From a virus, in IMG/VR virus record IMGVR_UViG_3300043015_000272, positions 1-28,705 of that record: a DNA stretch of 28,705 nt; one strand, written 5' to 3'. Made by a program: the position numbers and the translations under genes. The stretch's first letter is position 1; each line of letters opens with the position of its first letter. Positions 1 through 28,705 of this stretch are shown one piece after another. A model generated the notes under the pieces. The model was not told the origin of the DNA, ran no database searches, and saw only the letters and a list, made by a program, of their open reading frames with translations.

Positions 1-441
1 CCCATACATTTCTGCGTAAATTGTACTCTCAGCGGCATCGTTTCTACCTTTGACGCAGAATGTAGCAAGTTGGTCGCTTGCGGCAGGAGATGCACTATCT
101 CTGTCAAGTATAATTGTAGGTGCGCCTGCGGCGCCCGCGTCATTATGGTAAATATTAAGAACTTGACCTGATATATCTACAGCATGTGCAGGCGCGGCAA
201 CATTGATACCAATTCTATCATTGTCAGTATCAATTGCTAAAGTATCGGTATTAAATGTGTGAATACCCGTTGTGGCAGTATTTACAATAATGCCAGTTTG
301 TGTTTGCTGTGTATCTGTAATTGTTAAATTCGTTACGGTTGATGCACTATCATCAATTCCAGTTGAACTGAAAGTGGTAATTGTACCGCCATCTAATCTA
401 TTACCTGATACTCTCGGTTGTGCGCCTACATATTTCGCCAT
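1..441 (-). CDS. Tail fibre / virion surface protein, 3' part missing (partial)
   Basis: This ORF is open from an ATG at 441 to the left edge (147 codons visible), so the C-terminal part lies outside the window. It starts MAKYVGAQPRVSGNRLDGGT and continues with Thr/Ser/Asp-rich beta-type sequence. A segment around residues 78-103 (IDTDNDRIGINVAAP then HAVDISGQ) resembles the short shaft modules of phage tail fibres that precede a C-terminal adhesin or an S74-type chaperone domain; that C-terminal domain is not visible here. A Shine-Dalgarno GAGG lies 9 bases before the ATG, and one base separates it from the preceding gene's stop (TAATATG). It sits at the end of the baseplate operon, where T4-like phages place fibres. 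The family is inferred from composition and motif style, not from a specific match. Confidence 0.6.
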   Translation of the reverse strand, partial: MAKYVGAQPRVSGNRLDGGTITTFSSTGIDDSASTVTNLTITDTQQTQTGIIVNTATTGIHTFNTDTLAIDTDNDRIGINVAAPAHAVDISGQVLNIYHNDAGAAGAPTIILDRDSASPAASDQLATFCVKGRNDAAESTIYAEMYG

Positions 442-442
442 A

Positions 443-778
443 TTAGATGTCCTCTAAGATACTTGCAATTGCATTGAGTGATGATGCGGTATCACTTGTC
501 ACTGCTACTTTATCACTTTCATTCAGAACAATCTTCTGTCCACTAATAAATGAAAGCGTTGAGTTCGCAGGTATAGTTATACCATTTCCAAGCACTACAT
601 ATGCAGAAGCGGAATCATCCCAGATTTCAACTGTAACGGCAATTGCACTAACAGTGGTATTAGCAAGTTCTAATCCAATAAGCATACTACGCTTACCTAC
701 TGCGGATGGTGTAGTATACATATCAACTCTTGATGTTCCTACCCCACTAGCAATTCTATTCTCAAAATCGTTTGCCAT
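443..778 (-). CDS. Small virion structural protein (fibre/decoration type)
   Basis: This 111-residue protein has no signal peptide or membrane segment. It opens MANDFENRIASGVG and then shows an alternating beta pattern (VDMYTTPSAVGKRSMLIGLE, then VTVEIWDDSASAYVVLGNGI, then KIVLNESDKVAVTSDTA). This resembles small beta-sandwich virion proteins common in marine phages, in which a short IPANSTLSF loop links strands; that assignment is from recall of the style. The start is supported by GAGGAAAC 6-12 bases before the ATG. It lies between another small virion protein and the fibre gene, with gaps of 25 and 1 bases, so it is co-transcribed with them. A decoration, collar or fibre-attachment role is possible. 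No exact family can be named. Confidence 0.6.
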   Translation of the reverse strand: MANDFENRIASGVGTSRVDMYTTPSAVGKRSMLIGLELANTTVSAIAVTVEIWDDSASAYVVLGNGITIPANSTLSFISGQKIVLNESDKVAVTSDTASSLNAIASILEDI

Positions 779-803
779 TTGTTTCCTCTATCCTTTATAG
801 TAT

Positions 804-1148: not shown

Positions 1149-1430
1149 CTATGCAAATGCAATCAACTGTGGTCGCGTCAATGCAGTTGCGGTTGATAAA
1201 TTATCAAAATTAGTTTTTACTTCATTAACGGCACTAACTATATTTGATTTATTTGCTGTTGATAAGTTATTCAAATCCCCAACATTATTATTCAAAGTAT
1301 TAACACCACCAACAACAGTTGTTACACCAGCAGGAAGAGAAGCAGGATCACCTAAAGTTGTAGATACTGTATTTGTTTTTTGACGCCACTGGTCTAAACT
1401 GTCCGTTGATAATACTTGCGTAACTGCCAT
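1149..1430 (-). CDS. Small fibre-associated protein, paralogue of the 804-1139 product
   Basis: This 93-residue protein has the N-terminal signature DSLDQWRQKTNTVSTTLGD (residues 9-27), a second GDLNNLS segment (about 52-58), and NKSNIVSAVNEVKTNFDNL (about 61-79). The order SLxxW-x-x-[KR]-TN, GD-x-x-x-L, then IV-x-A-x-NE parallels the neighbouring 804-1139 protein, although identity is limited. A GGAG site lies 7 bases before the ATG, and the upstream gene ends one base away. The protein lacks signal peptide, membrane segments and Cys. It may form a short trimeric coiled-coil or beta prism that links a fibre to the baseplate. That role is an inference from module and position. Confidence 0.6.
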   Translation of the reverse strand: MAVTQVLSTDSLDQWRQKTNTVSTTLGDPASLPAGVTTVVGGVNTLNNNVGDLNNLSTANKSNIVSAVNEVKTNFDNLSTATALTRPQLIAFA

Positions 1431-1431
1431 A

Positions 1432-1656
1432 TTATTTCTCCAAAATTTCTTTTAACAAATTCTTTATGTCTGTCATCTCATCTTTTAAACTATTTAGTTC
1501 ATCACATAGATGCTCTACTTTTTGTTTTTCTGCGGTTTTATTATTATACGCCTGCATAAATTGAATATATTCGTGTCTAGAAGCGTTAATTACTGCACCA
1601 CTTGACACATCTCTAACTAAATTATCATGCCCTTCAATTCTAAGTCTAGAAGACAT
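1432..1656 (-). CDS. Small virion-operon protein with C-terminal coiled coil
   Basis: I place the start at the ATG at 1656 (MSSRLRIEGHDNLVRD), giving 74 residues. A longer reading from 1680 would begin inside the preceding coding region and adds an unconvincing MYLHWRCN leader. With the 1656 start, the ATG is one base from the stop of the upstream 2198-residue gene, matching the tight packing elsewhere in this operon. The N-terminal half (GHDNLVRDVSSGAVINASRH) looks globular. The C-terminal half (about residues 37-74) is a heptad-rich helix with ELNSLKDEMTDIKNLLKEIL, a likely coiled coil. A small coiled-coil protein following the large DUF4815-type gene could be its chaperone, trimerisation partner or a minor baseplate part. 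No specific family is recognised. Confidence 0.65.
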   Translation of the reverse strand: MSSRLRIEGHDNLVRDVSSGAVINASRHEYIQFMQAYNNKTAEKQKVEHLCDELNSLKDEMTDIKNLLKEILEK

Positions 1657-1657
1657 A

Positions 1658-4600
1658 TTACACCGCCAGTGCAAGTACACGCAAGTTTTTGATTTGCGGA
1701 ACGCTTGCTGGATTAGTAGATTTAAACACCAACTTCACGGCAATTGATGAGAATCCATTTAGATTTTCGACTAGATGTGTTCTTTCTCTAAAGATGAATT
1801 GATTTTCATCTGGTGAATCCGGAATTTCTGTCGTAGTTTGTACATATGGAATGGTGTCAAATGTTGCTTCATCACCATCAGGCAATACTTTATAATAAAC
1901 ATCAACTGTTGTTCCAGCAGGTCTGTTCATTTCATATAAAATCTTAATCGCGGTAGAAGAATTTTCTAATGTAAATCTTCTAGTGACATAGTTTGCAAGA
2001 TTGGTTGCGCCAACGGGTGCAATATCGTGAATGAACTTCTCTGCTTGGATAAGAGTGATAGCACTAGTAGCACTTTCATCTACTCCAGGAGCAGGCGAAA
2101 CTGTAATAGTCGATGTGGTACCATCATTTTTGTAATTTGTGATGATATAAGTTTTATCATTTGATGCGTTACCTGAACCACTAGTTGTAATTTCTTTACC
2201 AATATCTAATGTATCAAACTCTTCTCTAAGAGTTGCGTTAGTGGTTGTAATAGTACTATTAGTTGCAGAGTATGCAATATGTGTATTTGCACTAGCAACA
2301 GTTCTATTATCAAAGTCAGCAACATTGACACCAGATGCAGTCAAGTTATCAATTCTATTAGCAACAGTACATAACGATACTCTCTGACTATCAATTACAG
2401 GACTTACAAAAGAATTAGAACTAAACAATGTTGCTCTTAGTTGAGCAGAATATCCTGCCGTTGATTGATTATCATATGACATTATAGATTTTCTATCTGT
2501 AAAATATGTAATATCATTTTCAGCAATATTTTGCAATCCAGTAAATACTCCGTTTGTATTGCCGATATTCAAGTCATATGTTAATGATGTGTTTGCAAAC
2601 TTTAGTTGTGTAACAGTAGGAGTAATAACGTCAACTGGTAGATTTCTAGTTGCGCGAACTCCAGCACCCCCAACAAAATCTGCAGAAAGAATATCTGCTT
2701 CAGTTCCAGGATACGCTCCACCATCCGCGATGTTTGCTTCAGTAACTTCAATGACATATGTGTCTGTAGTAACTGGAGCAACAACTGTATGTTGTCCATT
2801 CAACTCTGTGTGTGGAATACCAACGCTTGTTGAGTTTGCACCATAAAATCCACTAGGTACTCCAGCAATTGATACTTTGTTGCCAGCAACAAATCCATGA
2901 TTTCTTTGATACACACGAACTTTATTCGAACCAGTTGTTGTTTCAAATGGGTCAGTTCTTAAAGTTGTGTAACCATTTCTGGAGTTCTGAAAGTTAATTT
3001 GTCCAACTGCATCACTAAACTCGGCGCGATGTAAGGTAAACTTCAAATCTCTAGTTTGGAAAGGAGTCCATGTTCCACCATTCTGCGATAAGAACATTGT
3101 TCCAGTTAACGGATTTTGAGATACAATTCGACCATCACCAATATTTGTTTTACCAACTTCAGAGAAGAATACTCTCATTCCAGGTTCATCTGCTTTAAGA
3201 ACAAGCGCATAAGTTGCGTCTTGTTGCATAAACACAGGACTATCAAAGGAAATAGTGGTTGATACAGTAGCATCATCAGAAGTATTAATTGCTGATGCAG
3301 GAATTGTTTTCTGTGCTAGAATTTTACCTGATGGATTTCCATCTTTAGTATTAAGTAACTGTACAATTAATGGGCGAGTACCTCTAGCAGAGAAGAACAA
3401 ATCAACTTTAGTAATCATTGCTCCATCAATAACATCTTGAACTACAAAAGTTTGTGCAAGTGGATCATGTCCAATTCTACGAGTTGGGGTAAATCTTGAA
3501 CTTACACCAATACTTCTTGTCACAACCCTATCTTGCTGTACGCGGTCACGAACAAACTCTGCTTGACGAACAGATAGAATTGTTTCTTCTCTCTCTTCAT
3601 TTAGACCAGAAGCATGGAAAATTCTCTCTGCTTTGGTTGAGTGTGTTCCGTAATCTAGATTGTTCGATATATTGTCTATTAATCTAAATACTCTCTCACC
3701 AGTTCTAAACTGCGTTGATGCATTGTTTGGTACAACGAATACGCCATTAAATGAACCATCATCATCAGTAATCTTATCACCACCAAACTTCTGAAGTTTC
3801 TTATAAACATCAGTTGATGTAGCATCTGTTACATCATTCACCGCTGTAATTGTACACTGGTTAATATTACCAGCATTATTAAGAAGTGTTCCTGTTAAAA
3901 CGTCACCAATTGCAAATCCATTTTGTCTGTTTGTAATATTAATATCAACAGGAGCGTTAGCGGCACCATTAGGATCATCTGGTCTCTGATAAGAGACAAC
4001 ACCAGATGCTTGCAATCTTGTAGCAGTTCCACCGCTGGTATATGCGGTTAGTGCAGATACAGGTGAATTATTATAATCAATTTGAATAATAGTAATTTGA
4101 TTTGTTCCAGTGTTTACACTTTCTACAAAATATCTGTTATCATTAACACCATCATAGTTAAGTTCTATCGCACCACCAATGTTGGCAAAGGTGACCATAT
4201 GACCAACTGCAATACCATTCACGCTTGCGAGTGTGATAGTTGTTACATTACCAACTTGAGTTACGTTAGTTACAGTTGTTGGTGTGTGTACTTGGTTGCG
4301 AACCACATCACCAAATCCAAATGCGGCAAATGGTTGCTTTAACCATGACCCAGAATTTTGGTCAAATGAATCCCAAAATCTTGCACTATCTGTATCTGCC
4401 TGTGATCCAGGGTCTGCCATTGGGGTAAACTGAAAATCAGTACGATTTGTTGATGTTACTGTTAGTTTTTCATCTGGAAGAACATATGCATTAACATTAA
4501 CATTATCAAAGAATGCTTGTACTTTGGTGCGCGGTTTCATGTTTCCAACAGAAACGTGAATTGGAATTTCACGCATGTAAGGAATTAAAGAAAGGTCTAC

Positions 4601-7600
4601 AATCTTATCGCCAAGAGATTTGTTTACATAACTACTTTGAAGAGAAGTCTCTGTTCCAATGTTGATTTGTCCAACCTCTTGGGTAGTCGTTGTTACAGTA
4701 TTAAATCCAATAAATCTGCTCCGACGTTCTAGACCACCCCTTACGCTTGTTTGATTGGTAGCACCAAACCAATTATCTTGCCAACCTTCCCAAACTGTAC
4801 CTTCAACTCCAATTTCATCTGCTAAGAATTGAATTGCATCAAAGTTGTTATCATCTTGTACAATTAGGTCAGGTCTGCGAGTTGTATCTTTCCAGTCATC
4901 TGATGCTGGAGTAAGTATCATTTCACCAGTAAAGGCGGAAACTTTATATGCGTTGACATCCATTGTGTCTGATGCATATGGATTATTAATATAAGAAACT
5001 TCTGAATATGGAAGAGTGATAATACCATCAACGTGTTTTTTATATCCAGATGTTGCTCTCTCGGCGTCTGTAGATACAGTTTCTACTAAAGAAACAATAT
5101 CTGAGTGCGCCATTGGTCGCGCAACTTTTCTCTTCATATCTACAGCAATACGATAATCTTCATTTGATACGTTACCAATGCCATGTCCACTAAATGGATC
5201 AACAATAAATCCATTCTTTAATCTATCATTACCATTAACATCTTTAACTAGTAGGTCGGTTGTTGCTTTTTCAAGTAAGTTAAGACTACTAATCAATTCT
5301 AGATTATTAATTCTAGTTTCCAATTTACCAATGTCGCGCATTGTATATCGTTTGTTATTGATTTTTTTCGCAATTGCTTCTGTTGTATTAAGTACATATG
5401 GTTGATAACTTACAACAAATAACGTCATTGCCTTATCTAAGTCGGCAGGTGGTTTAGGATCATCTGCAGGAACACCCTTGACAACAAAGAATTCTCCGTC
5501 AAAGTTAGCAACAACTTTATCAATTCTAGGTAAGTAATATGAGAAATCTGCTTCTACATTGGTTCCGATTACAGGTAGTTCACCTTTTGCTGAACCAGAA
5601 CCTGTGAATGATACTCCAGCATCATCAATTCTAGGTCTAAAGTCTAAACTATCTCGCAAGTCATATGATGCACCATCAGTTCCAGATGAGATATATGTAG
5701 GAATATCTTCATAATCAATAACGCCATCATAACTATCTACTGAGAAATAGTCTCCAGCACCATGAGTGAAGTAATCAAAAGTAATGAGCAATCTTCCAGA
5801 TGGGGCAGGATTGCCAGATTTTAACTTAATGCTTGCTAAGTCGTAATATGCATCTTTTTGTCCCGTGTCGAAATCATATCTACTAGTAATATCTAAATCG
5901 GATGCTGTTGCATTAGTACTAAAGTCAGCAGACATTTTAATAGATACCAATCGATATCCATCTGCTTTACCGAGTTTAATAACTGTGTTTTGTGCTTCTG
6001 CTTGCGTAGTAACTTGTTTTGTTTCATTAAGATTTAATGTTTTACTTTTTTCAACAGCATCATTACCACGAACATCAACTGAAGCAATCAAATCTACTGT
6101 ATCACCATCAGTTACAGGAGTATCAGTTAGAGTGTGAAGGTCACTAATGTTTAGTGTGCGGTCAGAACCAGTAAGGGTTAAGTTTGACGTTGTAATCTTT
6201 AGAACATCACCAGCACTTCTTGCCGAACCGCCTGCAGGTGTATTAATAATAAGTGTAAAGTTAGAAATATTGCCAGTAGAAGCGAATGTCTCTTCGGTTC
6301 CAGCGGCAGTAAATGACACAGAACCATTGTTTGCGTTTGCTACTGTTCCTGTTGCAAATTTTCTACGAACAGTGTAGTTAGTAGATGCAACATTATCTGG
6401 TGTGGCAGAACTATCACCACGAACTTTTCTCATACGGAAGTAGTTTGTATCGAATACAAGAATTTTTCTATCTGGTCTGATAATCTCTGCGCTAAAACGC
6501 TTCACAGAACCAGAAGTAATCGCCGCTAGACCGTTAGCAGTAAGGTTTAGAGATAAGTTGTTAGTAATTGTAGCAACTTCACCAACATCGATGTCGTTGA
6601 TGTATAGACGGTCTCCTACACTCACCTGTGAATTAAACAGTGTTCCTTGTCCAGTTACGGTTACTGCGCCTGTGCCTACTGTAGCACTACCTGTGAGTGT
6701 TACTAGTTTAGGTGAGATATCACATTTGAATGTTGCGCTTGCGGCAGTTGAATTATCTCCAAATGCTCTAGCATCTCTAGTAAAATCTTTACCTTGGTTC
6801 ATAACAATATCAAAAATACCAAACTTAAATTCAGTATCACCTGTATGTGCATCATCATAGTCACCACTATGAAGCATGAAACTTCTTACATTACAACTAC
6901 CAATTGCTGTTGGTGTACCACTAACAAAGTCATCGTAAATATAAATTTCTTCATAATCATCAATCTCAGGCATACCAGTTACGTTTTGTACAATTACATA
7001 GTTGCCAATTGGTGTCTGAATTGGTGTATCTACTACACGATTAAATGTTCTTGGTTTCTCAACATTCAAAAAACGAGTTGCTTGTAACTCAACTTCATAA
7101 CCTTGAATATATGCTTTACCAGGTTCGATGCCTAAAGCAAGATTTTCAGCAAGTCCACCCTCTAAGGTAGTAAAGATACCTCTGTTATTACCAGAGATTA
7201 AACTTTCGCGAACATCGACTTTGAATGGTTTAACTTCATAGTCACCACTTTCGTCATATGTTCTTCTTGCAAACTCTTCAGCAAGAACATTATAGTCTGC
7301 TTTCTTGACAAATCTTTGAATAGTACCGTTTTTAACACGACCCAATTCGATAAAGTTTGTATCAGTAGTTGCATCTAATGCTCTTTTTTCAAGAGTGAGA
7401 GTAATTTTATATCTGTGGGCACCAGGAGCGGCAAAGTTTGATGCTCCTTGTGCATTATCTTTTAGTGTTTCATCTTCTTCTGGTGTTAGTGTGCTTTGTA
7501 CAACTTTCCAACCAACACGATATGATGGAGCATTATGATATGGTTCCAACAATATGGTTTGGTTTTCGTTAGCAACAAAGAACCCATTTACAAAATAGAC

Positions 7601-8254: not shown

Positions 8255-8309
8255 TTATTTCTCCAGTGCGGTTTTATTCTAATCTAATCTTTTTGTACAA
8301 GTATTTAGA
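8255..8309 (-). other. Intergenic gap between gp8 and the DUF4815 gene, with inverted repeat
   Basis: This is one of the longest gaps in the leftward block. It holds the Shine-Dalgarno of the DUF4815 gene and most of a perfect 12-bp inverted repeat described separately. There is no exact TATAAATA element, but the leftward strand reads TCTAAATA at 8309-8302, a two-base departure from the late-promoter consensus and inside the repeat arm. Confidence 0.5.
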
Positions 8310-8316
8310 TTAGAAT
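8276..8316 (-). repeat. Perfect 12-bp inverted repeat (RNA hairpin candidate)
   Basis: ATTCTAATCTAA at 8276-8287 is exactly complementary to TTAGATTAGAAT at 8305-8316, with a 17-base spacer. The right arm covers the gp8 stop codon (8310-8312). In leftward RNA it would form an AU-rich hairpin just after gp8. There is no following U tract, so it is not a standard intrinsic terminator; it may be an mRNA stability or processing element, or a protein site. Confidence 0.6.
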
Positions 8317-21220: not shown

Positions 21221-21230
21221 TGCGTCCCTC

Positions 21231-21238
21231 TATAAATA
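21231..21238 (+). promoter_or_regulatory. T4-type late promoter, rightward (gp4 operon)
   Basis: Exact TATAAATA. Predicted +1 near 21244 gives a 28-base leader to the ATG at 21272. It faces the leftward promoter 13 bases away; the predicted start points overlap by three bases. Confidence 0.75.
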
Positions 21239-21251
21239 GTTATTGCAGTAT

Positions 21252-21259
21252 TATTTATA
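21252..21259 (-). promoter_or_regulatory. T4-type late promoter, leftward (gp48 operon)
   Basis: Leftward strand reads TATAAATA exactly. Predicted +1 near 21246 gives a 26-base leader with GAGGG before the gp48 ATG at 21220. It drives the whole baseplate block in this reading. Confidence 0.75.
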
Positions 21260-21271
21260 TGAGTTATACAG

Positions 21272-21706
21272 ATGGCATACAAAGGAAGATATTCTCCACT
21301 AAATCCTAAGAAATATCAAGGTAATCCAACCAATATTATTTATCGTTCTCTTTGGGAAAGAAAATTTATGGTATGGTGTGATATGAACAGTGATGTTATA
21401 AAATGGGGAAGTGAAGAAACTGTTATACCTTACATATCTCCTTTAGATAATAAAAGACACAGATACTTTGTTGACTTCTATATACAGGTTCGAACTAAAG
21501 AGGGCATACTCAAATCATATCTTGTAGAAGTTAAACCTAAAAAGTATACAAAACCACCAGAAAAATCCCCAACTAGAAAATCTAAATCGTGGTTCGGTGA
21601 AGTTAAGGCATGGGGTATAAACTCTGCAAAATGGAAAGCGGCATCTGAGTATGCTAAAGATAGACACTGGGAATTTATAATTCTTACAGAAGACCATTTA
21701 AAGTAG
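21272..21706 (+). CDS. gp4: Head completion protein gp4 (nuclease-like fold)
   Basis: This 144-residue protein (T4 gp4 is about 150) has the family layout: NIIYRSLWERKFMVWCDMN at residues 21-39, KWGSEETVIPYISPLDNKRH (44-63), RYFVDFYIQV (64-73), YLVEVKPKKY (83-92), and a closing basic AKWKAASEYAKDRHWEFIIL. Acidic residues E29 and D68 and the E86-V87-K88 triad fit a PD-(D/E)xK-like nuclease fold. gp4 acts at the DNA-filled head, preparing it for tail joining; an endonuclease role has been suggested for the family. It is the first gene of the rightward operon behind the TATAAATA at 21231. The next gene starts 14 bases after its stop. Confidence 0.88.
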   Translation: MAYKGRYSPLNPKKYQGNPTNIIYRSLWERKFMVWCDMNSDVIKWGSEETVIPYISPLDNKRHRYFVDFYIQVRTKEGILKSYLVEVKPKKYTKPPEKSPTRKSKSWFGEVKAWGINSAKWKAASEYAKDRHWEFIILTEDHLK

Positions 21707-21714
21707 CATAAATA
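21707..21714 (+). promoter_or_regulatory. Late-promoter-like element 5 bases before the 21720 ATG
   Basis: CATAAATA differs by one base from the late consensus and overlaps the end of gp4's stop region. It is followed by CTATT and the ATG at 21720, the same spacing as TATAAATA before gp25. The predicted +1 falls on the A of the ATG. No good Shine-Dalgarno is visible for this gene. Confidence 0.45.
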
Positions 21715-21719
21715 CTATT

Positions 21720-22310
21720 ATGGCAGAAGAAACTAGAATATTAGAACAAATTCGAAACGCACGTGGAGATGCATCGAAATCCTTTACATGGTATCAACAA
21801 CAAGTTAGAGACTTGGTTGGTACTCAGTATCCTGGACCTAGATTTCAACGTGAATATGCAGAAAACATGACTAATCGCATGTTACCTGGAAGAATGTATT
21901 TAATCAACTATTCAAATCCAGCAGGTAGAGATACTTTACCATACTACGATATGTTTCCACTAATATTACCATTCAACATTGAGAGTAATTTAGTGACAGC
22001 ATTGAATTTTCATTATTTACATCCAGTACAAAGATTAATTCTTTTAGAAAAACTAATGCCATTTAAAATTGGCGATACAGATATAGCAACGAGAATCCGA
22101 GCAAACTGGAATGTTCTAAGTAATTTTGCTAGATTTAGAGAAGTTAGACCGGCAGTTAAAAGATATAGAAGAGGATTAATTAAAGGGAGACTTCTTTTCA
22201 TTCAACCAGATGATTGGGTAACTGCCGCAGTATTACCAACCGAACAATTTAAAAAGGCATCTAAGCAAAAGGTTTACTTAGACAGCAATAGAAAAATGAG
22301 GCAACGATAA
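21720..22310 (+). CDS. Conserved virion/tail protein next to gp4 (196 aa)
   Basis: This protein has a helical N-terminus (WYQQQVRDLVG) and then PGRMYLINYSNPAGRDTLPY followed by YDMFPLILPFN (about 56-86), and LNFHYLHPVQRLILLEKLMP at about 95-114. The combination of G-x-MY-x-x-x-Y-x-P...LPYYD-x-FPL-x-x-PF with LNFHYL is a widespread pattern in T4-like phages. A basic C-terminal half (VRPAVKRYRRGLIKGRL) follows. In T4, gene 2 (DNA-end protector) neighbours gene 4, so a gp2 equivalent is one possibility, but the match is not specific and a tail role is equally likely. It lacks a convincing Shine-Dalgarno. Its stop overlaps the next ATG as TAATG. Confidence 0.6.
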   Translation: MAEETRILEQIRNARGDASKSFTWYQQQVRDLVGTQYPGPRFQREYAENMTNRMLPGRMYLINYSNPAGRDTLPYYDMFPLILPFNIESNLVTALNFHYLHPVQRLILLEKLMPFKIGDTDIATRIRANWNVLSNFARFREVRPAVKRYRRGLIKGRLLFIQPDDWVTAAVLPTEQFKKASKQKVYLDSNRKMRQR

Positions 22311-23101
22311 TGTCATTAACAGAATTCATAGCGAATGCTAAAATTAGAAATTTCGCAAGAGCAAATAAATATCTTGTCATTATTGACATGCCCAGAGGAC
22401 CATCAGCAAACAATTATGGTAGACCTGATCCATTTGGGTCTCTGTTTAGAACTGGAGGTAGAGGTGCAAACGATGCGTTTGGTGGTCTCATAAACAACTT
22501 TGTTAAGGCAGACGGTCAGTATCTAGCATCTTTGTTTTGTGAATCCACGGCACTACCAGGATTGAATATCGATAGTAAGATAAACAAGCAGTATGGTCCA
22601 GGGAGAGAAATTCCTTACGGTCGTAGTTATGCTCCTGTTAATATGTCTTTCTATATGGATGCTGGTTATCAGATTAAAGATTTCTTTGAAATTTGGCAAG
22701 GAATGATTTTTAATGAGGACTCATCTCATTTAAATTATTATAATGAATATGTGACGAATGTACACATTCTAGGATTAGATATGCGCGAAGGACGTTTTGG
22801 TACTTTTGGAGTTCTTCCTGATATAGGAACATTACAAAATAGTATCATCGTATCTAGATATCAGTGTACACTACAAGAATGTTACCCAAAAAGTGTAGCG
22901 GAAATTCAAATGTCCGCTGGTAGCGGTGAAGTACCTAGACTTCAAGTTCAGTTTCAATATAGAAAATGGACAAACACAAGCACACTGATGGGAGTTGGAA
23001 ATGTAACATCAACAACACCGGAATCGGATATTGTTAAGTACAATCCTGCAACAGGAACACTAGCACCAGCACCAGCACCATCATATCCACCAGGACCATA
23101 A
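22310..23101 (+). CDS. gp54: Baseplate tail-tube initiator, gp54-like (tube fold)
   Basis: This 263-residue protein has a tail-tube-type body: ANKYLVIIDMPRGP near residue 19, LFCESTALPGLNIDSKINKQ near 75, YGPGREIPYGRSYAPVNMSF near 95, YMDAGYQIKDFFEIWQGMIF near 115, then NEYVTNVHILGLD. These motifs (CESTALPG; YGPxRxxPY; FFxxWQ) are shared by gp19 tube and gp54 initiator proteins. gp54 and gp48 form the rings that start tube polymerisation on the hub; a gp48-like gene lies just across the divergent promoter. The C-terminus is a Pro/Ala-rich tail (LAPAPAPSYPPGP). It could alternatively be the main tube protein gp19, but the baseplate context favours gp54. Start is coupled (TAATG) to the gene before. 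Confidence 0.7.
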   Translation: MSLTEFIANAKIRNFARANKYLVIIDMPRGPSANNYGRPDPFGSLFRTGGRGANDAFGGLINNFVKADGQYLASLFCESTALPGLNIDSKINKQYGPGREIPYGRSYAPVNMSFYMDAGYQIKDFFEIWQGMIFNEDSSHLNYYNEYVTNVHILGLDMREGRFGTFGVLPDIGTLQNSIIVSRYQCTLQECYPKSVAEIQMSAGSGEVPRLQVQFQYRKWTNTSTLMGVGNVTSTTPESDIVKYNPATGTLAPAPAPSYPPGP

Positions 23102-23127
23102 TAACCATATAATGAGGAGAAAATAAT

Positions 23128-23835
23128 ATGGCACTACCAATAATTGATACTCCAACCTATGATTTGAAATTAGTATCATCAGGCGAGACTATTAAATACA
23201 GACCATTTTTGGTCAAAGAGCAAAAGATTTTATTAATGTCTGCAGAAGATGGAACACCAGATGCAGTTATGAATGGAATCACTCAAATCTTACAGAACTG
23301 TACGTTTGGTTCTGTTGATATATCTAAACTTCCTGTATTTGAAGTTGAAAACATTTTCTTACGTCTAAGAGAAAAGTCAGTAGGAGAGATTGCTGAATTT
23401 TCTGTGGCATGTACTAGTGATGAATGTAAAGGAACTACCCAAACAAAAATTGACTTGAGACATTTAAAAATTGATGAAACAAAAATCAAGTCTAAGACTA
23501 TTGAGTTAACATCTAGTTTATATGTTAATATGAGATATCCAACTCTAGTTGACTTAGGGGTTTTAAAAGACCTGAACAGTCTTGATGATAACTTCAAGTT
23601 TCTTGCAAGTTGTATTGAAAGTATTGAATATAACGGAGAACTCATTGACATGAGTACAACATCAAGAAGTGAGTTACAAGAGTTTATTGAAAATTTAACA
23701 CAACAACAATTTGAACTCATTAAAGAATTCTTTGCAGATATGCCAAGAATGTCTGGAAAATTAGAGTATGAATGTTCTGCTTGTGGAACGCACTGTGAAA
23801 GAGAATTAAGTGGACTTCAAAATTTTTTAGCATAG
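23128..23835 (+). CDS. gp26: Baseplate hub assembly protein gp26 (zero-frame product)
   Basis: This 235-residue protein opens with the family signature: PIIDTPTYDLKLVSSGETIK then YRPFLVKEQKILLMSAEDGT. VMNGITQILQNCTFGSVDIS and FEVENIFLRLREKSVGE follow. Two Cys pairs (C95/C100 and C216/C219, with C223) suggest a zinc ribbon. T4 gp26 (208 residues) acts with gp51 in hub assembly and is not in the mature particle. GAGGAG precedes the ATG by 10 bases. The frame closes with TTT TTA GCA TAG. The heptamer T_TTT_TTA two codons before the stop allows a -1 shift into the 58-codon frame at 23829-24005, giving a 292-residue form. The neighbouring tape-measure gene supports a tail-chaperone interpretation. 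Confidence 0.85.
   Translation: MALPIIDTPTYDLKLVSSGETIKYRPFLVKEQKILLMSAEDGTPDAVMNGITQILQNCTFGSVDISKLPVFEVENIFLRLREKSVGEIAEFSVACTSDECKGTTQTKIDLRHLKIDETKIKSKTIELTSSLYVNMRYPTLVDLGVLKDLNSLDDNFKFLASCIESIEYNGELIDMSTTSRSELQEFIENLTQQQFELIKEFFADMPRMSGKLEYECSACGTHCERELSGLQNFLA
23823..23829 (+). promoter_or_regulatory. -1 ribosomal frameshift slippery heptamer (T_TTT_TTA)
   Basis: In the gp26 frame the codons read AAT TTT TTA GCA TAG, so TTTTTTA fits X_XXY_YYZ exactly. Slipping back one base re-pairs TTT/TTT and places AGC next, entering the downstream open frame. I see no strong stem-loop or pseudoknot just 3', only a weak GTTT/AAAC hairpin. The nearby zero-frame stop may itself stimulate the shift. 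Confidence 0.7.
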
Positions 23836-24005
23836 TCCTCTCGCATGAAGATTTGTTTGGTTTATTAAAAACTAACTTTGCTCTTATGCAACATCATAAA
23901 TACTCTTTAACAGAGTTAGAAAATATGATGCCATGGGAGAGGGAAATTTACGTCACTCTTCTAATGCAATACATTGAAGAGGAAAAAGAACGACAAAAGG
24001 GATAA
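23829..24005 (+). CDS. -1 frame C-terminal extension of gp26 (frameshift product)
   Basis: From AGC at 23829 the frame is open for 58 codons to TAA at 24003-24005. It reads SIVLSHEDLFGLLKTNFALM, QHHKYSLTELENMMPWEREI, then YVTLLMQYIEEEKERQKG. It looks like real protein: a helical, conserved-looking core (TNFALMQHHKYSLTELE, MPWEREIYVTLL) with an acidic/basic C-terminal helix, and it resembles the C-terminal segment I associate with long gp26-type proteins in related phages. In this frame the first ATG lies 19 codons in, with no Shine-Dalgarno, so independent initiation is unlikely. The next gene starts three bases after its stop, filling what would otherwise be a 173-base gap. A sequencing frameshift in the T6 run is the main alternative. 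Confidence 0.7.
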   Translation, partial: SIVLSHEDLFGLLKTNFALMQHHKYSLTELENMMPWEREIYVTLLMQYIEEEKERQKG

Positions 24006-24008
24006 AAA

Positions 24009-24338
24009 ATGGGAGAAGATATTAAAGAAGCAGGTTTCCATCCAGCAGACACCAATGGTGATGGAACAGTAACCACAGATGAGCAAAAAATGTATCTTGA
24101 GTTCAAACGTAAAGAACTTGAAGATGCAGATGCGAGAAGAGATGCAATGAGATATATGACATGGTTCGCTTTGTTGGGTATATTCAACTATCCAGGGGCG
24201 ATTTTGATTACAGCAATGTTAGGTTATGATACAGCGGCGAATATTATCGGAGATATTGCTCCGACTTACTTCGTTGCCACTTCAGCAATTGTTGCCGCTT
24301 ACTTTGGCGCGAATGCTTACACAGACAAGAAGAAATAG
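24009..24338 (+). CDS. Small membrane protein with EF-hand-like calcium loop
   Basis: Residues 14-25 read DTNGDGTVTTDE, a perfect EF-hand loop with ligand positions D14, N16, D18, T20, T22 and E25. A charged helix follows (EFKRKELEDADARRD). Two hydrophobic segments at about 50-71 (FALLGIFNYPGAILITAM) and 85-103 (PTYFVATSAIVAAYFG) should span a membrane, leaving the calcium loop at the N-terminus and a Lys-rich C-terminus. Two-helix membrane proteins of about 100 residues in phages are often holins, but this gene lies between gp26 and the tape measure, so it may be a virion or assembly protein. It starts three bases after the frameshift frame's stop with no strong ribosome site of its own. Confidence 0.7.
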   Translation: MGEDIKEAGFHPADTNGDGTVTTDEQKMYLEFKRKELEDADARRDAMRYMTWFALLGIFNYPGAILITAMLGYDTAANIIGDIAPTYFVATSAIVAAYFGANAYTDKKK

Positions 24339-24350
24339 GGAAACACTTAA

Positions 24351-26216
24351 ATGGCAGATATAGCATCACTAGCGGAAGCAATTGAACATCTAAAAATAGA
24401 AGTTCAGTCTACGGGCGGGCAACAGATTGTTTTCCTAGATAGTTTATCTGTTAATATGGAAGATTTGGTGTCAACATCTTCTCTAATGCTTGCGGAGTTA
24501 ATTGCAATTAAAGATGCACTTGCTCCTGACAATGCATTTGAGAGAGTGCAACAAAAAGAACGTGAGCGAGAAGCAGACATTAGTGGACAGAATGTAACAC
24601 CAGACCAACAAGCAATTAAACCTGTGAAGAGTGGTATGTCAGGCAAAGGAATGCTTATGGGTGCCGCTCTTATTGGTGGTATTGGCGCATTACTTGCAAC
24701 ATTCTCAGGATTGCTTGACTTTGATGCAGAAGCACTAAAACAAAAAGTAAAGACACTTCTCTCACTCAAAGATGAAGTAGCAGATGGTAGTCTATTAAAA
24801 CTTCTTGCTGAAGGTGGTGTGCTTATTGCAGTTCTTGGTGGTATAGGTCTTGCTCTTGGAGCATTTGGTATTGGTGCCGCTGTTGCTGGAGGTGGTATGG
24901 CATTCGCGGACTGGGCAGGAGGAGGAAACTGGTCTCAAGCAATCGTAGACCACGTTGTAACTCTACTCTCTATTAAAGACCAACTTGGTGGCAATCTTGA
25001 AATGCTAAAAGATGGGTTTGCATTTACACTCGCAATGACAGGTGTTGGATTAGGTCTTGCCGCGTTTGGTGCTGGTGCCTTTGTTGGTGGTGCAGGATTA
25101 GGTTTTTCCGATTGGGCAGGTGGAGACAACTGGTCACAAAAAATTAAAGACCATGTAGTTACATTACTATCAATCAAAGATGAACTTGGTGGTAACTGGG
25201 ATATGTTAAAAGCATCAGGTGCCTTTGCTCTTGCAATGGGAGGTGTTGGTGCTGGTCTTGCCGCTATCGGTATTGGTATGGCAGTTGCGGGTGCTACTTT
25301 AACATTAGCAGACTGGATGGCAGGTGATTGGTCACAAAAAATTAAAGACCATGTTATAATTCTTCTTTCTATATCTGATGCTCTAGGTGGTGCTAAAGCA
25401 TTTATTGGTGAAGCGGCAACATTCGCTCTTGCGATGGCGGGCATTGGATTAGGTCTTGCCGCATTCTCTGCCGGGCAAGCGGCGGCGGCAGTTGCAAAGT
25501 TTATATCGGCAGACGATTGGACACAAACCATCAAAGATAATGTTAAGAACTTATTATCTATTACTAGTGAAGGATACGACCAGAAAAAAGCAGATGAATT
25601 CTCTTCTGTTATGGGTACTATCTCTGCAGGACTACTAAAGTTCTCCGGTGGTAATCTAGTTTCTTCTCTCGCAGGTGCGGCAAGTGGTATTCTGAACTTC
25701 TTGTCTGGTAAAGAGAGTCCTATTGAAGAGATGATGAATATTGCGAATAAAGCAGATAAGTTAGAAAAAGGTGCTAATGCACTTGATAGAATTGCTGGCG
25801 CACTAAGTAAAATCTCAGGTCTAAACTTTAATGGTTCTGATTTGAATATCGCAGATATGGCAGAGGATTTATTGAAATCTATTCCTGCAATTGAAACTGC
25901 TATCAATGGTGGTACTGTTGGGGAAGGATGGATATCATCTGGAACAAAGATTAAAGGTCTTGCATCTGGCGATATTAAGTTTGATGAAGCGGCAAAGAAC
26001 ATCACATTACTGAGAGAATCCTTAGGACTAGCACCAGTAGTTCAAGCGGCACCAACTGCAGACGTATCTAGTGCAGTAGTGCCACCAGCGCAACAACCAG
26101 TAATTAATACTGTTACAACCGTGGCGGCACCAACAACAATGAACTCAAGCAGTAATACAAATATTTCGCCTAGAAATCAACAACAGAAAGCATGGCAGGA
26201 AGACTTAGTATATTAA
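24351..26216 (+). CDS. Probable tail tape-measure protein with tandem repeats (621 aa)
   Basis: The protein follows gp26, as expected for the T4 gp29 tape measure (590 residues). The N-terminal 85 residues are helical and polar. Residues about 98-455 contain five units of 63-69 residues. Each has a polar segment (cores TLLSLKD, TLLSIKD, TLLSIKD, ILLSISD, NLLSITS starting at residues 135, 204, 271, 337 and 400) and a Gly/Ala-rich hydrophobic helix (e.g. GIGLALGAFGIGAAVAGGGM), closed by DW or NWS-type motifs. The hydrophobic helices suit the tail tape measure, which enters the host membrane during infection. The C-terminal 170 residues are non-repetitive, ending in a Pro/Asn-rich linker. An AGGGA site precedes the ATG. 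Its stop overlaps the stop of the convergent gene (TTAA). A different internal virion role is possible. Confidence 0.65.
   Translation: MADIASLAEAIEHLKIEVQSTGGQQIVFLDSLSVNMEDLVSTSSLMLAELIAIKDALAPDNAFERVQQKEREREADISGQNVTPDQQAIKPVKSGMSGKGMLMGAALIGGIGALLATFSGLLDFDAEALKQKVKTLLSLKDEVADGSLLKLLAEGGVLIAVLGGIGLALGAFGIGAAVAGGGMAFADWAGGGNWSQAIVDHVVTLLSIKDQLGGNLEMLKDGFAFTLAMTGVGLGLAAFGAGAFVGGAGLGFSDWAGGDNWSQKIKDHVVTLLSIKDELGGNWDMLKASGAFALAMGGVGAGLAAIGIGMAVAGATLTLADWMAGDWSQKIKDHVIILLSISDALGGAKAFIGEAATFALAMAGIGLGLAAFSAGQAAAAVAKFISADDWTQTIKDNVKNLLSITSEGYDQKKADEFSSVMGTISAGLLKFSGGNLVSSLAGAASGILNFLSGKESPIEEMMNIANKADKLEKGANALDRIAGALSKISGLNFNGSDLNIADMAEDLLKSIPAIETAINGGTVGEGWISSGTKIKGLASGDIKFDEAAKNITLLRESLGLAPVVQAAPTADVSSAVVPPAQQPVINTVTTVAAPTTMNSSSNTNISPRNQQQKAWQEDLVY
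25131..25354 (+). repeat. Direct DNA repeat within the tape-measure gene
   Basis: A 26-base identical segment (starting TGGTCACAAAAAATTAAAG) occurs at 25131-25156 and at 25329-25354, 198 bases apart, exactly 66 codons. This matches the repeat-unit length of the protein and points to duplication or gene conversion between units 3 and 4. Confidence 0.7.
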
Positions 26217-26734
26217 TTCGCCAAAGGATTATCTAAAGCACGTTGTACCATCTTTTTCAATCTTTCTTCTAGTTCATTCAATTGCCTATCTACATCACTA
26301 GAGACTTTATCACGTTTGTTATCAAACCTCTGGTCGGCAAGGTCTACGAGTTCTCGCACTTCTTTAGTCTGGTCTGTCAACTGTATGCGAACCTCGTATT
26401 CGCTATCTTTCACTCTTTGTTCAGTCTTGTCAACTATCTGTTCGATACGTTCAATATCACTCTTTAAATCTATCTTTATATCTCTAGTGTAATCTCTTGC
26501 TTCAGTGACACTCTCTTGTAGTTTAATCATATTAGCATCAAGCACAGATAATTGTTCTTGTAGACCTGATAAGTCAGGTGCAACATATTCTTGTATTTGC
26601 TCTTTCATATTCATGTAGTCTTTGTAGAATTCAAATCCTGCCCATAGACCACCACCCAATGCACTAAGCAATGGTAGTATGAGTAACATCTTACCACCAG
26701 ATATTTTTGCTCCTGCAACTTCTATTTCTGCCAT
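26213..26734 (-). CDS. Membrane-anchored long coiled-coil protein
   Basis: This 173-residue protein has one N-terminal membrane segment (about residues 15-35: KMLLILPLLSALGGGLWAGF). A continuous charged helix of about 130 residues follows (LQEQLSVLDANMIKLQE, IERIEQIVDKTEQRVKD, QLNELEERLKKMVQRAL). The short N-terminal cytoplasmic part has no cleavage site, so the coil probably faces the periplasm. Spanins, which also join a membrane anchor to a coiled coil, are a possible comparison, but no lipoprotein partner is visible here and the order in the operon is not typical. AGGAGAGAG precedes the ATG. It is the last gene of the leftward envelope module and shares its stop bases with the tape-measure gene from the other strand. 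Confidence 0.65.
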   Translation of the reverse strand: MAEIEVAGAKISGGKMLLILPLLSALGGGLWAGFEFYKDYMNMKEQIQEYVAPDLSGLQEQLSVLDANMIKLQESVTEARDYTRDIKIDLKSDIERIEQIVDKTEQRVKDSEYEVRIQLTDQTKEVRELVDLADQRFDNKRDKVSSDVDRQLNELEERLKKMVQRALDNPLAN

Positions 26735-26745
26735 TTCTCTCTCCT

Positions 26746-28431
26746 TTATTGATACTGCATATCGACCATCTTGTCGTGCAGAATTTGTTGTGCGAGTCCA
26801 TTGCGTAATCCTCGCTGATTTTCTTTCGGTGATTTAGTATACTCATTAGGCAACGCACTTTCAAGTCTAACACCGTCAGGCATCGATGCTTGATATGCAC
26901 CAAATCCTTGATTGAAGTTCATTAGTGCTATAGCAAGTCCTTGCGCCGCTTGCTGTTCTTCAAGTGATACTGCATTCGCAATCTTCAACGCATTATCTGC
27001 CGCTTTCTTTGCAATGATTTTGCGTAGTTTCTTTTTCTTACTTTCTTTTTTATCTTCTTTCTTTTCTTCTTGTGCAACTTCTTCTTCAGGTTCATCTTCA
27101 GTTGCTTCTGGTTCTGTATCTGCTACTTGCTCTTCTTCAGCAGGTTCTCTATCTTCTGCAACCTCATCTGTAGTCTCTTCTTCTGATTGCTCATCAGTTG
27201 ACGCAACTTCCTCTTCTCGCTCTTCTTGCTCAGGCATCTCTTCAATAGTTTCAGCAACTTCTTCAACAACCTCTTCAGGTGCTTCAAGACTTTCTTCAAA
27301 TGACTGTATCTCTGCAATCTCTATCTCCTGACTAGTTGGTTCTTCTATAACAAATTCTACTTCCGGTAATGCTTCTACCGTTTCAACTACAGGTGCTTCT
27401 ATCGCAGGTTCAAAAATATCGATAACAGAAAACCCACCAAATTCAGTAGTGTTCAACTCATTGCTTATTAAGTTATCAATGATAGCATCACCAGTAGTAG
27501 AAACTTCATCAAACTCAATTACATTTTCAACAACAGGTTGCTCCTCAAATTGTGCCAATTCTTCTTGCTGAGGTTCTACAAAAGTTTCATAGTAAAGTTG
27601 TTCGTAACCAGGACATGATGGATCATATAAAGCGTCTACGGCGCAGTTCTGTGCAAATACTATCTCTGCTAGTGCTTCAGCATAACCAGTACACAGACTG
27701 CTATAAAGCGGATTAGCGGCGCACATAGCATCCAGATTGAAAGTGTATATTACTTCACCCTTACTATTGTATCCGTTAGGTTCAAATTTAAATTGTTCTA
27801 TCTCATTATTAGTAGTGTCACCAAATATACCTACAGTAACAGCATGATTGACAATGTTAATATCAAAGTGATGTATCTCAATAGCACCACTATCAAAGTT
27901 CATCTCTACACCAAATGTATTGAGATTGTTTGCATCATGAAACTCTGCGATATACCGCCAATAATAACGTAGTGTATCGATATCACCATCATTGTCTGTA
28001 TCAAGTTCTTTAGTGAAGAATCCACTATCAGGTATACCATCACCAGTCACATCTACATTCAAGTCAATCAAGTCTGTCCATAATGCCGCGATAGTATAAT
28101 TAAAGAATGGTTGTCCAGGAAGAGTTCCATTCGCCGCCATTGATGCAACGTCTTGTCCATTACAACAAAAATGCTGAAAAGGTGCATTCGTGTTAATGTT
28201 AGGACCGTACATGACAACAGCACCATTAGACATGAATGCACTATTAGTGAATACTTGACCATTCATAGTGAACGGAACAGGTAAATCTACAAGAGCATTG
28301 CTATCATCAAATATCTGATACTGAGTTGTACCCTCAGAACCAGGTTCGATGAACTCTTCTGCTATACTAGAGTAAGAGTAGAAGCAATAGAACAGAACCA
28401 GCGCCCATAGCGGCACCTTTAATTGTATCAT
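26746..28431 (-). CDS. Secreted NIDO-like protein with calcium loops, Cys repeats and Glu-rich stalk
   Basis: The 561-residue protein starts with a Sec signal peptide (MIQLKVPLWALVLFYCFYSY, with cleavage likely after SSIA at residue 24). Residues about 40-230 look like a NIDO-type beta domain (PFFNYTIAALWTDLIDLN, FGVEMNFDSGAIEIHHFDIN). Loops GDGIPD and DTDNDGDID at about 127-152 resemble thrombospondin-3/dockerin calcium loops. Two Cys units follow at about 237-279: C-x6-7-LY...C-x-GY, as in CAANPLYSSLCTGY and NCAVDALYDPSCPGY. Residues about 290-455 are Glu-rich and probably extended, and a Lys-rich patch (KKEDKKESKKKKLRKIIAKK) leads to a helical C-terminus. AAAGAGG precedes the ATG. It overlaps the upstream gene by 65 bases. 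Secretion by a phage suggests host-surface display, exclusion or release, but this is inference. Confidence 0.6.
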   Translation of the reverse strand: MIQLKVPLWALVLFYCFYSYSSIAEEFIEPGSEGTTQYQIFDDSNALVDLPVPFTMNGQVFTNSAFMSNGAVVMYGPNINTNAPFQHFCCNGQDVASMAANGTLPGQPFFNYTIAALWTDLIDLNVDVTGDGIPDSGFFTKELDTDNDGDIDTLRYYWRYIAEFHDANNLNTFGVEMNFDSGAIEIHHFDINIVNHAVTVGIFGDTTNNEIEQFKFEPNGYNSKGEVIYTFNLDAMCAANPLYSSLCTGYAEALAEIVFAQNCAVDALYDPSCPGYEQLYYETFVEPQQEELAQFEEQPVVENVIEFDEVSTTGDAIIDNLISNELNTTEFGGFSVIDIFEPAIEAPVVETVEALPEVEFVIEEPTSQEIEIAEIQSFEESLEAPEEVVEEVAETIEEMPEQEEREEEVASTDEQSEEETTDEVAEDREPAEEEQVADTEPEATEDEPEEEVAQEEKKEDKKESKKKKLRKIIAKKAADNALKIANAVSLEEQQAAQGLAIALMNFNQGFGAYQASMPDGVRLESALPNEYTKSPKENQRGLRNGLAQQILHDKMVDMQYQ

Positions 28432-28705
28432 TGCGTTGTTCCTCTTTTTTTACGCTTTCAGGTCTCAACTCAGGATATGTTTCCCATAGTTGTTTTGCTT
28501 CATCTCCGATTTTACCCATAAACGGACAAGGTGTACCTGCCATCTCCATAGCATCAAAGACACGCTCATCTTGACACATGTTAGAGACTGCCGCTACTTT
28601 CATACCCATATCATAGAGGACTTTTGAGAGTTTAAGACGTTCACAGTTCATATCTCTGACTGCCGAACCGCCTGAGAAACCTAATACTTGTGTTTGTACT
28701 GCTCC
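28367..28705 (-). CDS. Cys-containing envelope-module protein, 5' end outside window (partial)
   Basis: The frame is open from the right edge to TAG at 28367-28369. It includes 18 codons before the first visible ATG (GAVQTQVLGFSGGSAVRD), so the true start probably lies beyond 28705 and the first 94-residue reading from 28651 is likely a fragment. Its core is MNCERLKLSKVLYDMGMKVA, then NMCQDERVFDAMEMAGTPCP and FMGKIGDEAKQLWETYPE. Three Cys (in NC, MC, TPC) suggest an oxidised fold outside the cytoplasm. The C-terminus ends in GSVLLLLLLL, a poly-Leu hydrophobic tail. Its 3' end overlaps the start of the secreted 561-residue gene by 65 bases, so expression is coupled. A similar core occurs in other marine phage proteins as far as I recall; function unknown. 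Confidence 0.6.
   Translation of the reverse strand, partial: GAVQTQVLGFSGGSAVRDMNCERLKLSKVLYDMGMKVAAVSNMCQDERVFDAMEMAGTPCPFMGKIGDEAKQLWETYPELRPESVKKEEQRNDTIKGAAMGAGSVLLLLLLL

What the first reader, a model, noticed from the sequence alone, without database searches (positions are those of the whole stretch)
1..28705. Near-total absence of RGCY tetranucleotides (AGCT, AGCC, GGCT absent; GGCC twice)
Reading the whole window by eye I found no AGCT, no AGCC and no GGCT. GGCC occurs only at 9663-9666 and 19846-19849. AGC and GGC are always followed by a purine (apart from those two GGCC), while RGCR and YGCR tetramers (AGCA, AGCG, GGCA, TGCA, GCGC, CGCG) are common. With G+C near 35 percent (estimated by eye), about 200 RGCY sites would be expected. 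RGCY is the CviJI specificity and contains AluI and HaeIII sites. This points to strong selection against a host or competitor restriction or modification system of RGCY type, or a phage-encoded sequence bias.
Basis: partly seen in the sequence, partly recalled or inferred. Interest (0 to 1): 0.85.

Follow-up and report, generated by a model that had tools for sequence, protein, structure and literature searches.

The report
Phage genome purged of RGCY sites
A group of marine T4-like phages has erased practically every copy of the short DNA word RGCY, along with several other short words, most likely because an unknown DNA-cutting enzyme destroys genomes that carry it; the pressure is strong enough to thin out one pair of amino acids in their proteins.

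Summary
The window is a marine T4-like phage fragment. In the window plus seven clade contigs (587 kb, partly overlapping) AGCT is 0 of ~2,217 expected and AGCC/GGCT 0 of ~1,978; 55 GGCC remain. Of these, 23 encode Trp-Pro, the only dipeptide that forces an RGCY, and Trp-Pro itself is depleted (19 vs 54.5). RGCY is one of several eliminated words: GCWGC, GATC outside GGATC, AACGTT, CTTAAG, TGCGCA, GCATGC, TACGTA; CGCG and TTTAAA only in some members. Other marine T4-like phages lack other 4-bp palindromes. Best reading: elimination of Type II restriction sites, a known strategy, with a specificity known to me (recall) only from chloroviruses (CviJI). Neither enzyme nor host was identified. A phage-borne nuclease is not excluded: two T4-like phages of one SAR11 strain differ in which palindromes they lack, and SAR11 almost never carries restriction systems (PMC7029224, passage).

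The parts
1..28705 (.). Whole record: structural-gene stretch of a marine T4-like phage with RGCY eliminated (2 vs ~235 expected), GCWGC 0 vs 28, HGATCD 0 vs 69
9663..9666 (.). Residual GGCC in ATG-GCC, codons 1-2 of the ORF 8310-9668 (-)
19846..19849 (.). Residual GGCC in TGG-CCG, a Trp-Pro dipeptide of the ORF 19293-20111 (-); Trp-Pro cannot be encoded without GGCC
1346..27624 (.). The 21 residual GATC sites; none lies outside a GGATC context (HGATCD 0)
12704..14668 (-). T4-like baseplate wedge protein gp6 (654 aa); used to place the phage (43.8-46.1% identity to the gp6 of HTVC008M, Melnitz and Mosig)

Best explanation
The window is part of a lytic marine T4-like phage whose lineage has repeatedly met a Type II restriction endonuclease that cuts RGCY and does not find the phage genome protected. 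Genomes with a site are cut and lost, so mutants without sites are kept until the word is gone. The word is removed mostly by synonymous change (Ala GCY practically only after a pyrimidine, Ser AGC and Gly GGC only before a purine) and, where the protein forces it (Trp-Pro = TGGCCN), partly by changing the protein. The other missing words are the marks of further enzymes met by the same lineage. Shown: the elimination, its clade-wide extent, its mostly synonymous route, the Trp-Pro depletion, no C5-methylase match in the clade records examined. Inferred: that the cutter is a restriction enzyme, that it is host-borne, and that one enzyme of RGCY specificity (not AluI-like plus HaeIII-like) is responsible.
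For: RGCY 2 vs 148 +/- 8.6 by synonymous shuffle; Ala GCY after a purine 1 of 234, after a pyrimidine 198 of 448; of Ser AGY codons, AGC before a purine 39 of 167, before a pyrimidine 0 of 51. Window plus 7 clade contigs: AGCT 0/~2,217, AGCC+GGCT 0/~1,978, GGCC 55/~443. 27 clade loci, some near-identical: 66 sites vs 2,786 expected. At 273 RGCY sites of homologues in Mosig, S-CRM01 and G005 (RGCY O/E 0.78-1.15) where the dipeptide is identical, 268 are lost in window or G001 and the 5 kept are all GGCC; control YGCR kept 124 of 271. 23 of 55 residual GGCC are Trp-Pro; Trp-Pro 19 vs 54.5 in six clade contigs while Pro-Trp is 70 vs 54.5. GCWGC is nearly gone and several 6-bp palindromes are gone. 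Non-palindromic AGCC/GGCT is as absent as AGCT, which argues for one RGCY enzyme. C5 methylase: 0 of 9 clade records. Avoidance is lineage-specific: the nearest outgroup in the methylase tree, L297 (6.4 kb), has RGCY 0.89, while G017 lost RGCY (1/172) with HGATCD normal. Precedents: HF1-group haloviruses (PMC7230728); Rusinov 2018 (PMC6286503).
Against: No RGCY restriction or modification enzyme was found and the host is unknown. Relatives isolated on an R-M-poor host also lack whole palindromes (HTVC008M TCGA 0.01 and CGCG 0.03, Mosig ACGT 0.00 and CGCG 0.00, both on HTCC1062), which host restriction does not explain simply. GGCC is kept at about 0.12 of expectation, and 26 of the 55 residual sites are neither Trp-Pro nor a start codon, so GGCC is less strictly enforced than AGCT and AGCC. 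Partial RGCY depletion (0.13-0.34) in cyanophages, HTVC008M and Melnitz spans hosts too different to share one system easily.
Confidence: 0.72

Rival explanations
1. The phage itself makes a sequence-specific nuclease that cuts RGCY to break up the host chromosome or rival phages, and protects itself by having no sites rather than by a methylase (a methylase-free analogue of chlorovirus CviJI).
For: Avoided palindromes do not simply follow the isolation host: HTVC008M and Mosig share host strain HTCC1062 and both lack CGCG, but HTVC008M lacks TCGA (0.01; Mosig 0.44) and Mosig lacks ACGT (0.00; HTVC008M 0.34); only 1 of >100 SAR11 genomes codes for an R-M system (PMC7029224, passage). Cyanomyoviruses lack T4 denA, ndd and denB and may use an undescribed way to degrade host DNA (PMC2984593, passages). 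Chlorovirus restriction enzymes are packaged and thought to degrade host DNA (PMC7019647, passages).
Against: HNH 0 of 3 clade contigs, GIY-YIG 0 of 7 clade contigs. The two protein families that come nearest to tracking RGCY depletion fail: DUF6267 (6 of 6 depleted, 1 of 4 others) also occurs in G035, G036 and G039, whose loci L317, L355 and L354 have RGCY 0.68, 0.49 and 0.67, and carries a KxDG ligase-like motif (seen by eye, recall); a 110-aa family (5 of 6, 0 of 4) also occurs in P-SSP7 with RGCY 0.97. CGCG avoidance differs between close relatives, yet of the G001 ORFs only a 136-aa glycine-rich protein and a 48-aa ORF are found in G019 and not in G002, G003, G021, G022, and the 48-aa one also occurs in the window and G017, which have CGCG. 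Many missing words would need many nucleases per phage. Such enzymes diverge fast and several contigs are partial, so this is weak evidence.
Confidence: 0.14
2. Several separate enzymes (an AluI-like AGCT cutter, a HaeIII-like GGCC cutter, and something cutting AGCC) rather than one RGCY enzyme.
For: AGCT is missing with AGCC near normal in other lineages (L039; L314, L319, L323, L347, L353), and GGCC is low with AGCT and AGCC near normal or high in P-SSP7 and phiM12 and in marine T7-like loci.
Against: Non-palindromic AGCC/GGCT is 0 of ~1,978 in the clade, and G017 lost the whole set too (AGCT 0/74, AGCC 0/77, GGCC 1/20).
Confidence: 0.1
3. A mutational or compositional bias, for example m5C deamination at RGCY turning it into RGTY/RACY, without selection.
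For: RGTY/RACY is 878 vs 779 under synonymous shuffle, though those are also the natural synonymous substitutes.
Against: C5 methylase 0 of 9 clade records; of the 258 outcomes listed for 273 conserved-dipeptide sites, 95 are RGTY or RACY, the commonest being AGCA (51); zero in over 4,000 expected AGCT and AGCC/GGCT (overlapping contigs) and the loss of unrelated palindromes do not look like decay.
Confidence: 0.02

Closest known systems
Restriction-site elimination in lytic dsDNA phages (Rusinov et al. 2018, PMC6286503: abstract, passages and part 1 of the Discussion read)
   Same: Near-complete loss of a Type II-like site in an apparently non-temperate phage; that study calls CB < 0.1 elimination and finds it mainly for orthodox Type II sites
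   Different: Here the matching enzyme and host are unknown, the word is a degenerate 4-mer, and many words are lost at once
HF1-group haloviruses (PMC7230728, passages read)
   Same: Total loss of GATC and CTAG in the virus isolates and of 21 six-mer palindromes across a group of related lytic myoviruses; AGCT lost in HRTV-7; ascribed to host sequence-specific defences
   Different: Archaeal hosts with described CTAG and GATC systems; the RGCY class and a protein-level effect are not in the passages read
Chlorovirus CviJI (PMC7019647, passages read)
   Same: Cuts PuGCPy, the same word (that this is its normal specificity is recall)
   Different: Virus-encoded in algae; chloroviruses modify their DNA with many methylases, about a quarter of which have companion endonucleases, rather than losing the sites (the last point is recall)
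GANTC depletion in pelagiphages (PMC9516812, passages read)
   Same: Marine phages; depletion follows phage phylogeny; hosts without known R-M
   Different: Different motif, mostly podoviruses, discussed there in terms of host methylation marks

Membership tests
Type II restriction-site elimination in a phage | Observed/expected of the word below 0.1 with expected count above 15 | tested here: met
   RGCY 2/235 in the window; O/E 0.00-0.02 in the clade contigs. Our expectation is an order-1 model, not the CB statistic of PMC6286503
Type II restriction-site elimination in a phage | Loss exceeds what protein sequence and codon usage give | tested here: met
   2 vs 148.0 +/- 8.6 in 300 synonymous shuffles
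Type II restriction-site elimination in a phage | A host enzyme of that specificity | tested here: inconclusive
   Host unknown; 2 of 8 alphaproteobacterial genomes with a relative of the clade's PstS-like protein carry C5 methylases of unknown specificity
Type II restriction-site elimination in a phage | Lytic lifestyle | not tested
   Inferred from T4-like genes
CviJI-type virus-encoded restriction system | C5 methylase gene in the virus | tested here: not met
   PF00145: 0 of 9 clade records; 2 of 29 records in all, Melnitz and S-CRM01; the contigs may be incomplete
CviJI-type virus-encoded restriction system | RGCY endonuclease gene in the virus | tested here: inconclusive
   HNH 0 of 3 and GIY-YIG 0 of 7 clade contigs; other folds and diverged enzymes would be missed
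T4-like phage related to Kyanoviridae | Homologues of T4-like phage genes, nearest to members placed in Kyanoviridae | tested here: met
   gp6 tblastn: 35.6-46.1% identity in the 40 rows listed, best HTVC008M, Melnitz, Mosig (their records say Kyanoviridae); many ORFs of clade contig G001 have homologues in these phages

The most novel reading that the evidence does not exclude
Marine T4-like phages carry unrecognised, fast-evolving sequence-specific nucleases for host-genome destruction, each with its own short target, and protect themselves only by having no target sites; genomes free of RGCY, TCGA, ACGT, CCGG, GCGC or GTAC would be the fingerprints of these nucleases rather than of host restriction.
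Probability: 0.13. Interest if true: 0.85.

Novelty: new member of a known kind. Interest (0 to 1): 0.52.

Why it matters
A genome-wide list of missing words is a record of the cutting enzymes that a phage lineage has met. Here it predicts an RGCY-cutting activity in marine bacteria or their phages, a specificity that I know (recall) only from chloroviruses, and shows that the pressure can reach amino-acid sequence through Trp-Pro. It also poses a testable puzzle: T4-like phages on SAR11, which almost never has restriction systems (PMC7029224, passage), lack whole palindromes.

Tried and rejected
Looked for a protein family whose presence follows RGCY depletion among whole phage genomes. The nearest, DUF6267 and a 110-aa family, fail as told under the first rival. 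Looked for one that follows CGCG avoidance: no convincing one. Families shared by the pairs lacking ACGT, TCGA or CCGG gave no recognisable nuclease for the word; for ACGT one RuvC-like protein is shared by Mosig, G006 and G001, but G001 has ACGT at 0.40; for TCGA no family was shared. The unknown proteins among them were not searched further.

Suspected that the phage methylase (G001:36629-38188, TSPPY motif by eye, N6_N4 type) explains the tolerated GGATC. HTVC008M shows the same GGATC-only pattern (83 of 83 sites) without a PF01555 match, and L299, L344, L350 and L363 carry the methylase yet lack GGATC too. Rejected as a sufficient cause.

Host search: gp6 in genome contigs found no relative. 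The PstS-like protein of G001 matched 52 genome loci, 50 of them alphaproteobacterial by title, best identities 57-58%; the gene lies outside the window, so this is a weak lead. In G025 two C5 methylases stand beside a 266-aa ORF without a match in NCBIfam, PADLOC or PDB sequences, in G027 one stands beside an ORF with a weak REase_II match; specificities unknown.

Against my reading, or limits: marine T7-like loci have normal overall RGCY (45 of 80 loci, those of at least 6 kb: median 0.98, range 0.82-1.13) but avoid GGCC (median 0.08, AGCT 1.39, AGCC 0.84; Trp-Pro 18 vs 69.8 in the 31 of 46 lowest), so avoidance is not a T4-like privilege. Other dipeptides are not flat either: in six clade contigs Trp-Ala is 64 vs 110.4 and Met-Pro 182 vs 129.1. 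HTVC008M has GGCC 0.22 but Trp-Pro 0.93. Conservation of Trp-Pro at aligned sites is suggestive only (6 of 18 kept, Pro-Trp 17 of 29). The link of Trp-Pro with GGCC is partly tautological, since each Trp-Pro makes a GGCC. Dropped before counts: loci under 6 kb (35 of 80 T7-like and 9 of 80 methylase loci; likewise), G013, 30 of 80 loci in the tree. T4, KVP40, P-SSM2 and S-PM2 were opened for 1.5 kb each and family searches but their RGCY was not counted.
Full report
Observation. Order 2 is conservative because its trimers already contain the depletion. With proteins and overall codon usage fixed, 300 synonymous shuffles of 24 genes give 148.0 +/- 8.6 (minimum 124) against 2. Ala GCY follows a purine once in 234 Ala codons but a pyrimidine 198 times in 448; Ser AGC and Gly GGC never precede a pyrimidine (0 of 51 AGY codons and 0 of 204 Gly codons).

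What the window is. The record is a 28,705-base IMG/VR virus record. Its gp6 is 43.8-46.1% identical to the gp6 of Pelagibacter phages HTVC008M and Mosig and Methylophilales phage Melnitz, and further from cyanomyoviruses. IMG/VR holds 27 loci at 74-100% gp6 identity, the clade.

Extent. These 27 loci, some near-identical, have 66 RGCY against 2,786 expected; one, L016, has one AGCT. In the window plus seven longer contigs (587,265 bases in sum; G002 overlaps the window's region at 99% gp6 identity, and G001 and G020 share an identical methylase, so the sums are not independent) AGCT is 0 of ~2,217, AGCC+GGCT 0 of ~1,978, and GGCC 55 of ~443. Elsewhere RGCY O/E is Syn1 0.13, P-HM2 0.18, G013 0.20, G004 0.21, HTVC008M 0.25, Melnitz 0.34, G006 0.69, Mosig 0.78, phiM12 0.89, S-CRM01 0.94, P-SSP7 0.97, G005 1.15. 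T7-like loci have median 0.98 (45 of 80 loci), but their GGCC is 0.08.

Not RGCY alone. In six clade contigs (488,286 bases) GCAGC is 5 of 398, and AACGTT, CTTAAG, TACGTA, TGCGCA and GCATGC are all 0 with 43-112 expected; GAGCAC is 2 of 115 and CGACG 4 of 156. GATC survives only where G precedes or C follows it: HGATCD is 0 of ~1,586 in the window plus seven contigs. Among these contigs CGCG is absent from G001, G020 and G019 but not from the window, G002, G003, G021 and G022; TTTAAA is absent only from G001 and G020. So the list changes among close relatives. Other phages show their own gaps: HTVC008M TCGA 0.01 and CGCG 0.03, Mosig ACGT 0.00 and CGCG 0.00, P-HM2 CCGG and GCGC 0.00, Syn1 CCGG and GTAC 0.00, G004 TCGA 0.00.

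Route of loss. At 273 RGCY sites of homologues in Mosig, S-CRM01 and G005 where the dipeptide is identical in the window or G001, 268 are gone; the five kept are GGCC; YGCR controls are kept at 124 of 271 (window and G001 are counted separately, so sites can repeat). Of the 258 outcomes listed, 95 are RGTY or RACY and the commonest single one is AGCA (51), which speaks against deamination as the main route.

Residual sites and protein-level effect. By the genetic code every RGCY can be removed by a synonymous change except GGCC in Trp-Pro (TGG CCN). Of the 55 residual GGCC, 23 are Trp-Pro, 6 are Met1-Ala2 starts, 24 are other in-frame cases and 2 lie in no called ORF. Window 19846 is a Trp-Pro and 9663 a Met1-Ala2 start. 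Trp-Pro itself is depleted: 19 vs 54.5 in six clade contigs (Poisson 2.6e-8), with Pro-Trp 70 vs 54.5, Trp-Ser 106 vs 105.4, but Trp-Ala 64 vs 110.4 (after TGG two of the four Ala codons would make an RGCY). Over 17 records with at least 5 expected Trp-Pro, GGCC and Trp-Pro O/E correlate (Spearman 0.90). In 119 loci of gp6 or methylase relatives, binned by GGCC O/E, Trp-Pro is 0.20, 0.40, 0.71 and 0.77; the methylase loci of at least 6 kb each share three or more other ORFs with G001 (62 of 62). The records are related and the link is partly tautological, so these figures are descriptive; the point is that avoidance did not stop at synonymous change.

Cause. The words are mostly palindromes or degenerate palindromes, as for Type II enzymes, and elimination in lytic phages is known (PMC6286503; PMC7230728). 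Equal absence of AGCC/GGCT favours a single RGCY specificity. C5 methylase: 0 of 9 clade records, so self-protection by m5C is unlikely in what was sequenced. An N6/N4-type methylase (519 aa in G001) is present in 6 of 7 clade contigs searched, not in G002, whose coverage of that region is unknown, and relatives occur in many other phage loci; its target is unknown. In the methylase tree (50 of 80 loci, midpoint root) the nearest outgroup L297 does not avoid RGCY or GATC, and the next, L298 (record G017), lacks RGCY but keeps GATC, so avoidance is gained or lost on short branches.

Open point. Two T4-like phages of the same SAR11 strain both lack CGCG but differ in TCGA and ACGT, while only one of more than 100 SAR11 genomes codes for an R-M system (PMC7029224, passage) and eight Pelagibacterales MAGs had none (PMC9516812, passage). 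Either they have other hosts, or some avoided words are imposed by the phage itself. Cyanomyoviruses lack the T4 genes for host-DNA degradation and may use an undescribed route (PMC2984593, passages). I found no nuclease that follows any avoided word, but such enzymes diverge fast and several contigs are partial.

Literature on RGCY. Full-text search for RGCY with phage found one paper, on an unrelated DNA-library tool; of the 15 listed for RGCY, methyltransferase and restriction, only that same paper holds RGCY. Searches on cyanophage and pelagiphage avoidance listed 12 of 32 and 10 of 22 papers, none describing RGCY loss by title or start of abstract. That RGCY enzymes are otherwise unknown in bacteria is recall.

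Verdict. A real, extreme case of short-word elimination, best explained as restriction-site avoidance against an unidentified RGCY cutter; a new member of a known kind, with an unusual target and a protein-level trace.

Noticed in passing
window, 21 sites between 1346 and 27624; G001, G002, G003: GATC occurs only in a GGATC context; HTVC008M shows the same (83 of 83) and in Mosig all 19 GATC are GGATCC. Something spares GATC there.
   Followed up: partly
L082:16629-18188 (-), G001:36629-38188: 519-aa phage protein with a C-terminal N6/N4-methylase domain and TSPPY motif; relatives at 58-100% identity in the 80 IMG/VR loci listed; target unknown.
   Followed up: partly
Syn1, P-HM2, G004, HTVC008M, Mosig, G006: Each of these marine T4-like phages lacks or nearly lacks one or more 4-bp palindromes (Syn1 GTAC 0/540 and CCGG 0/141, G004 TCGA 0/452, Mosig ACGT 0/247 and others).
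   Followed up: partly
HTVC008M whole genome: The non-palindromic word TCAAGA is 0 of 84 expected.
   Followed up: no
L086:3559-3989 and L090:18590-19023: Clade phages carry tmRNA genes with tags ANDNFAHSEYALAA and ANDNIAYEDIRLAA; Melnitz is annotated with one too.
   Followed up: no
T7-like loci L207-L286: Marine T7-like loci avoid GGCC but not AGCT or AGCC, and in the 31 of 46 with lowest GGCC Trp-Pro is 18 vs 69.8; Trp-Gly is oddly rare (21 vs 107.4) and Pro-Trp common (147 vs 69.8).
   Followed up: partly
L081-L087 (G001): Auxiliary-type genes: tryptophan halogenase-like, ring-hydroxylating oxygenase-like, PstS-like binding protein with alphaproteobacterial relatives, several 2OG-Fe(II) oxygenases.
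   Followed up: partly
phiM12: 45 near-absent words, among them CCAGG 1/151 and CGATCG 0/122; Trp-Pro O/E 0.22.
   Followed up: no
G001:17607-18851 (-) and relatives: DUF6267 protein with a KxDG motif (by eye), which suggests a nucleic-acid ligase; in 17 of 38 phage records searched.
   Followed up: partly
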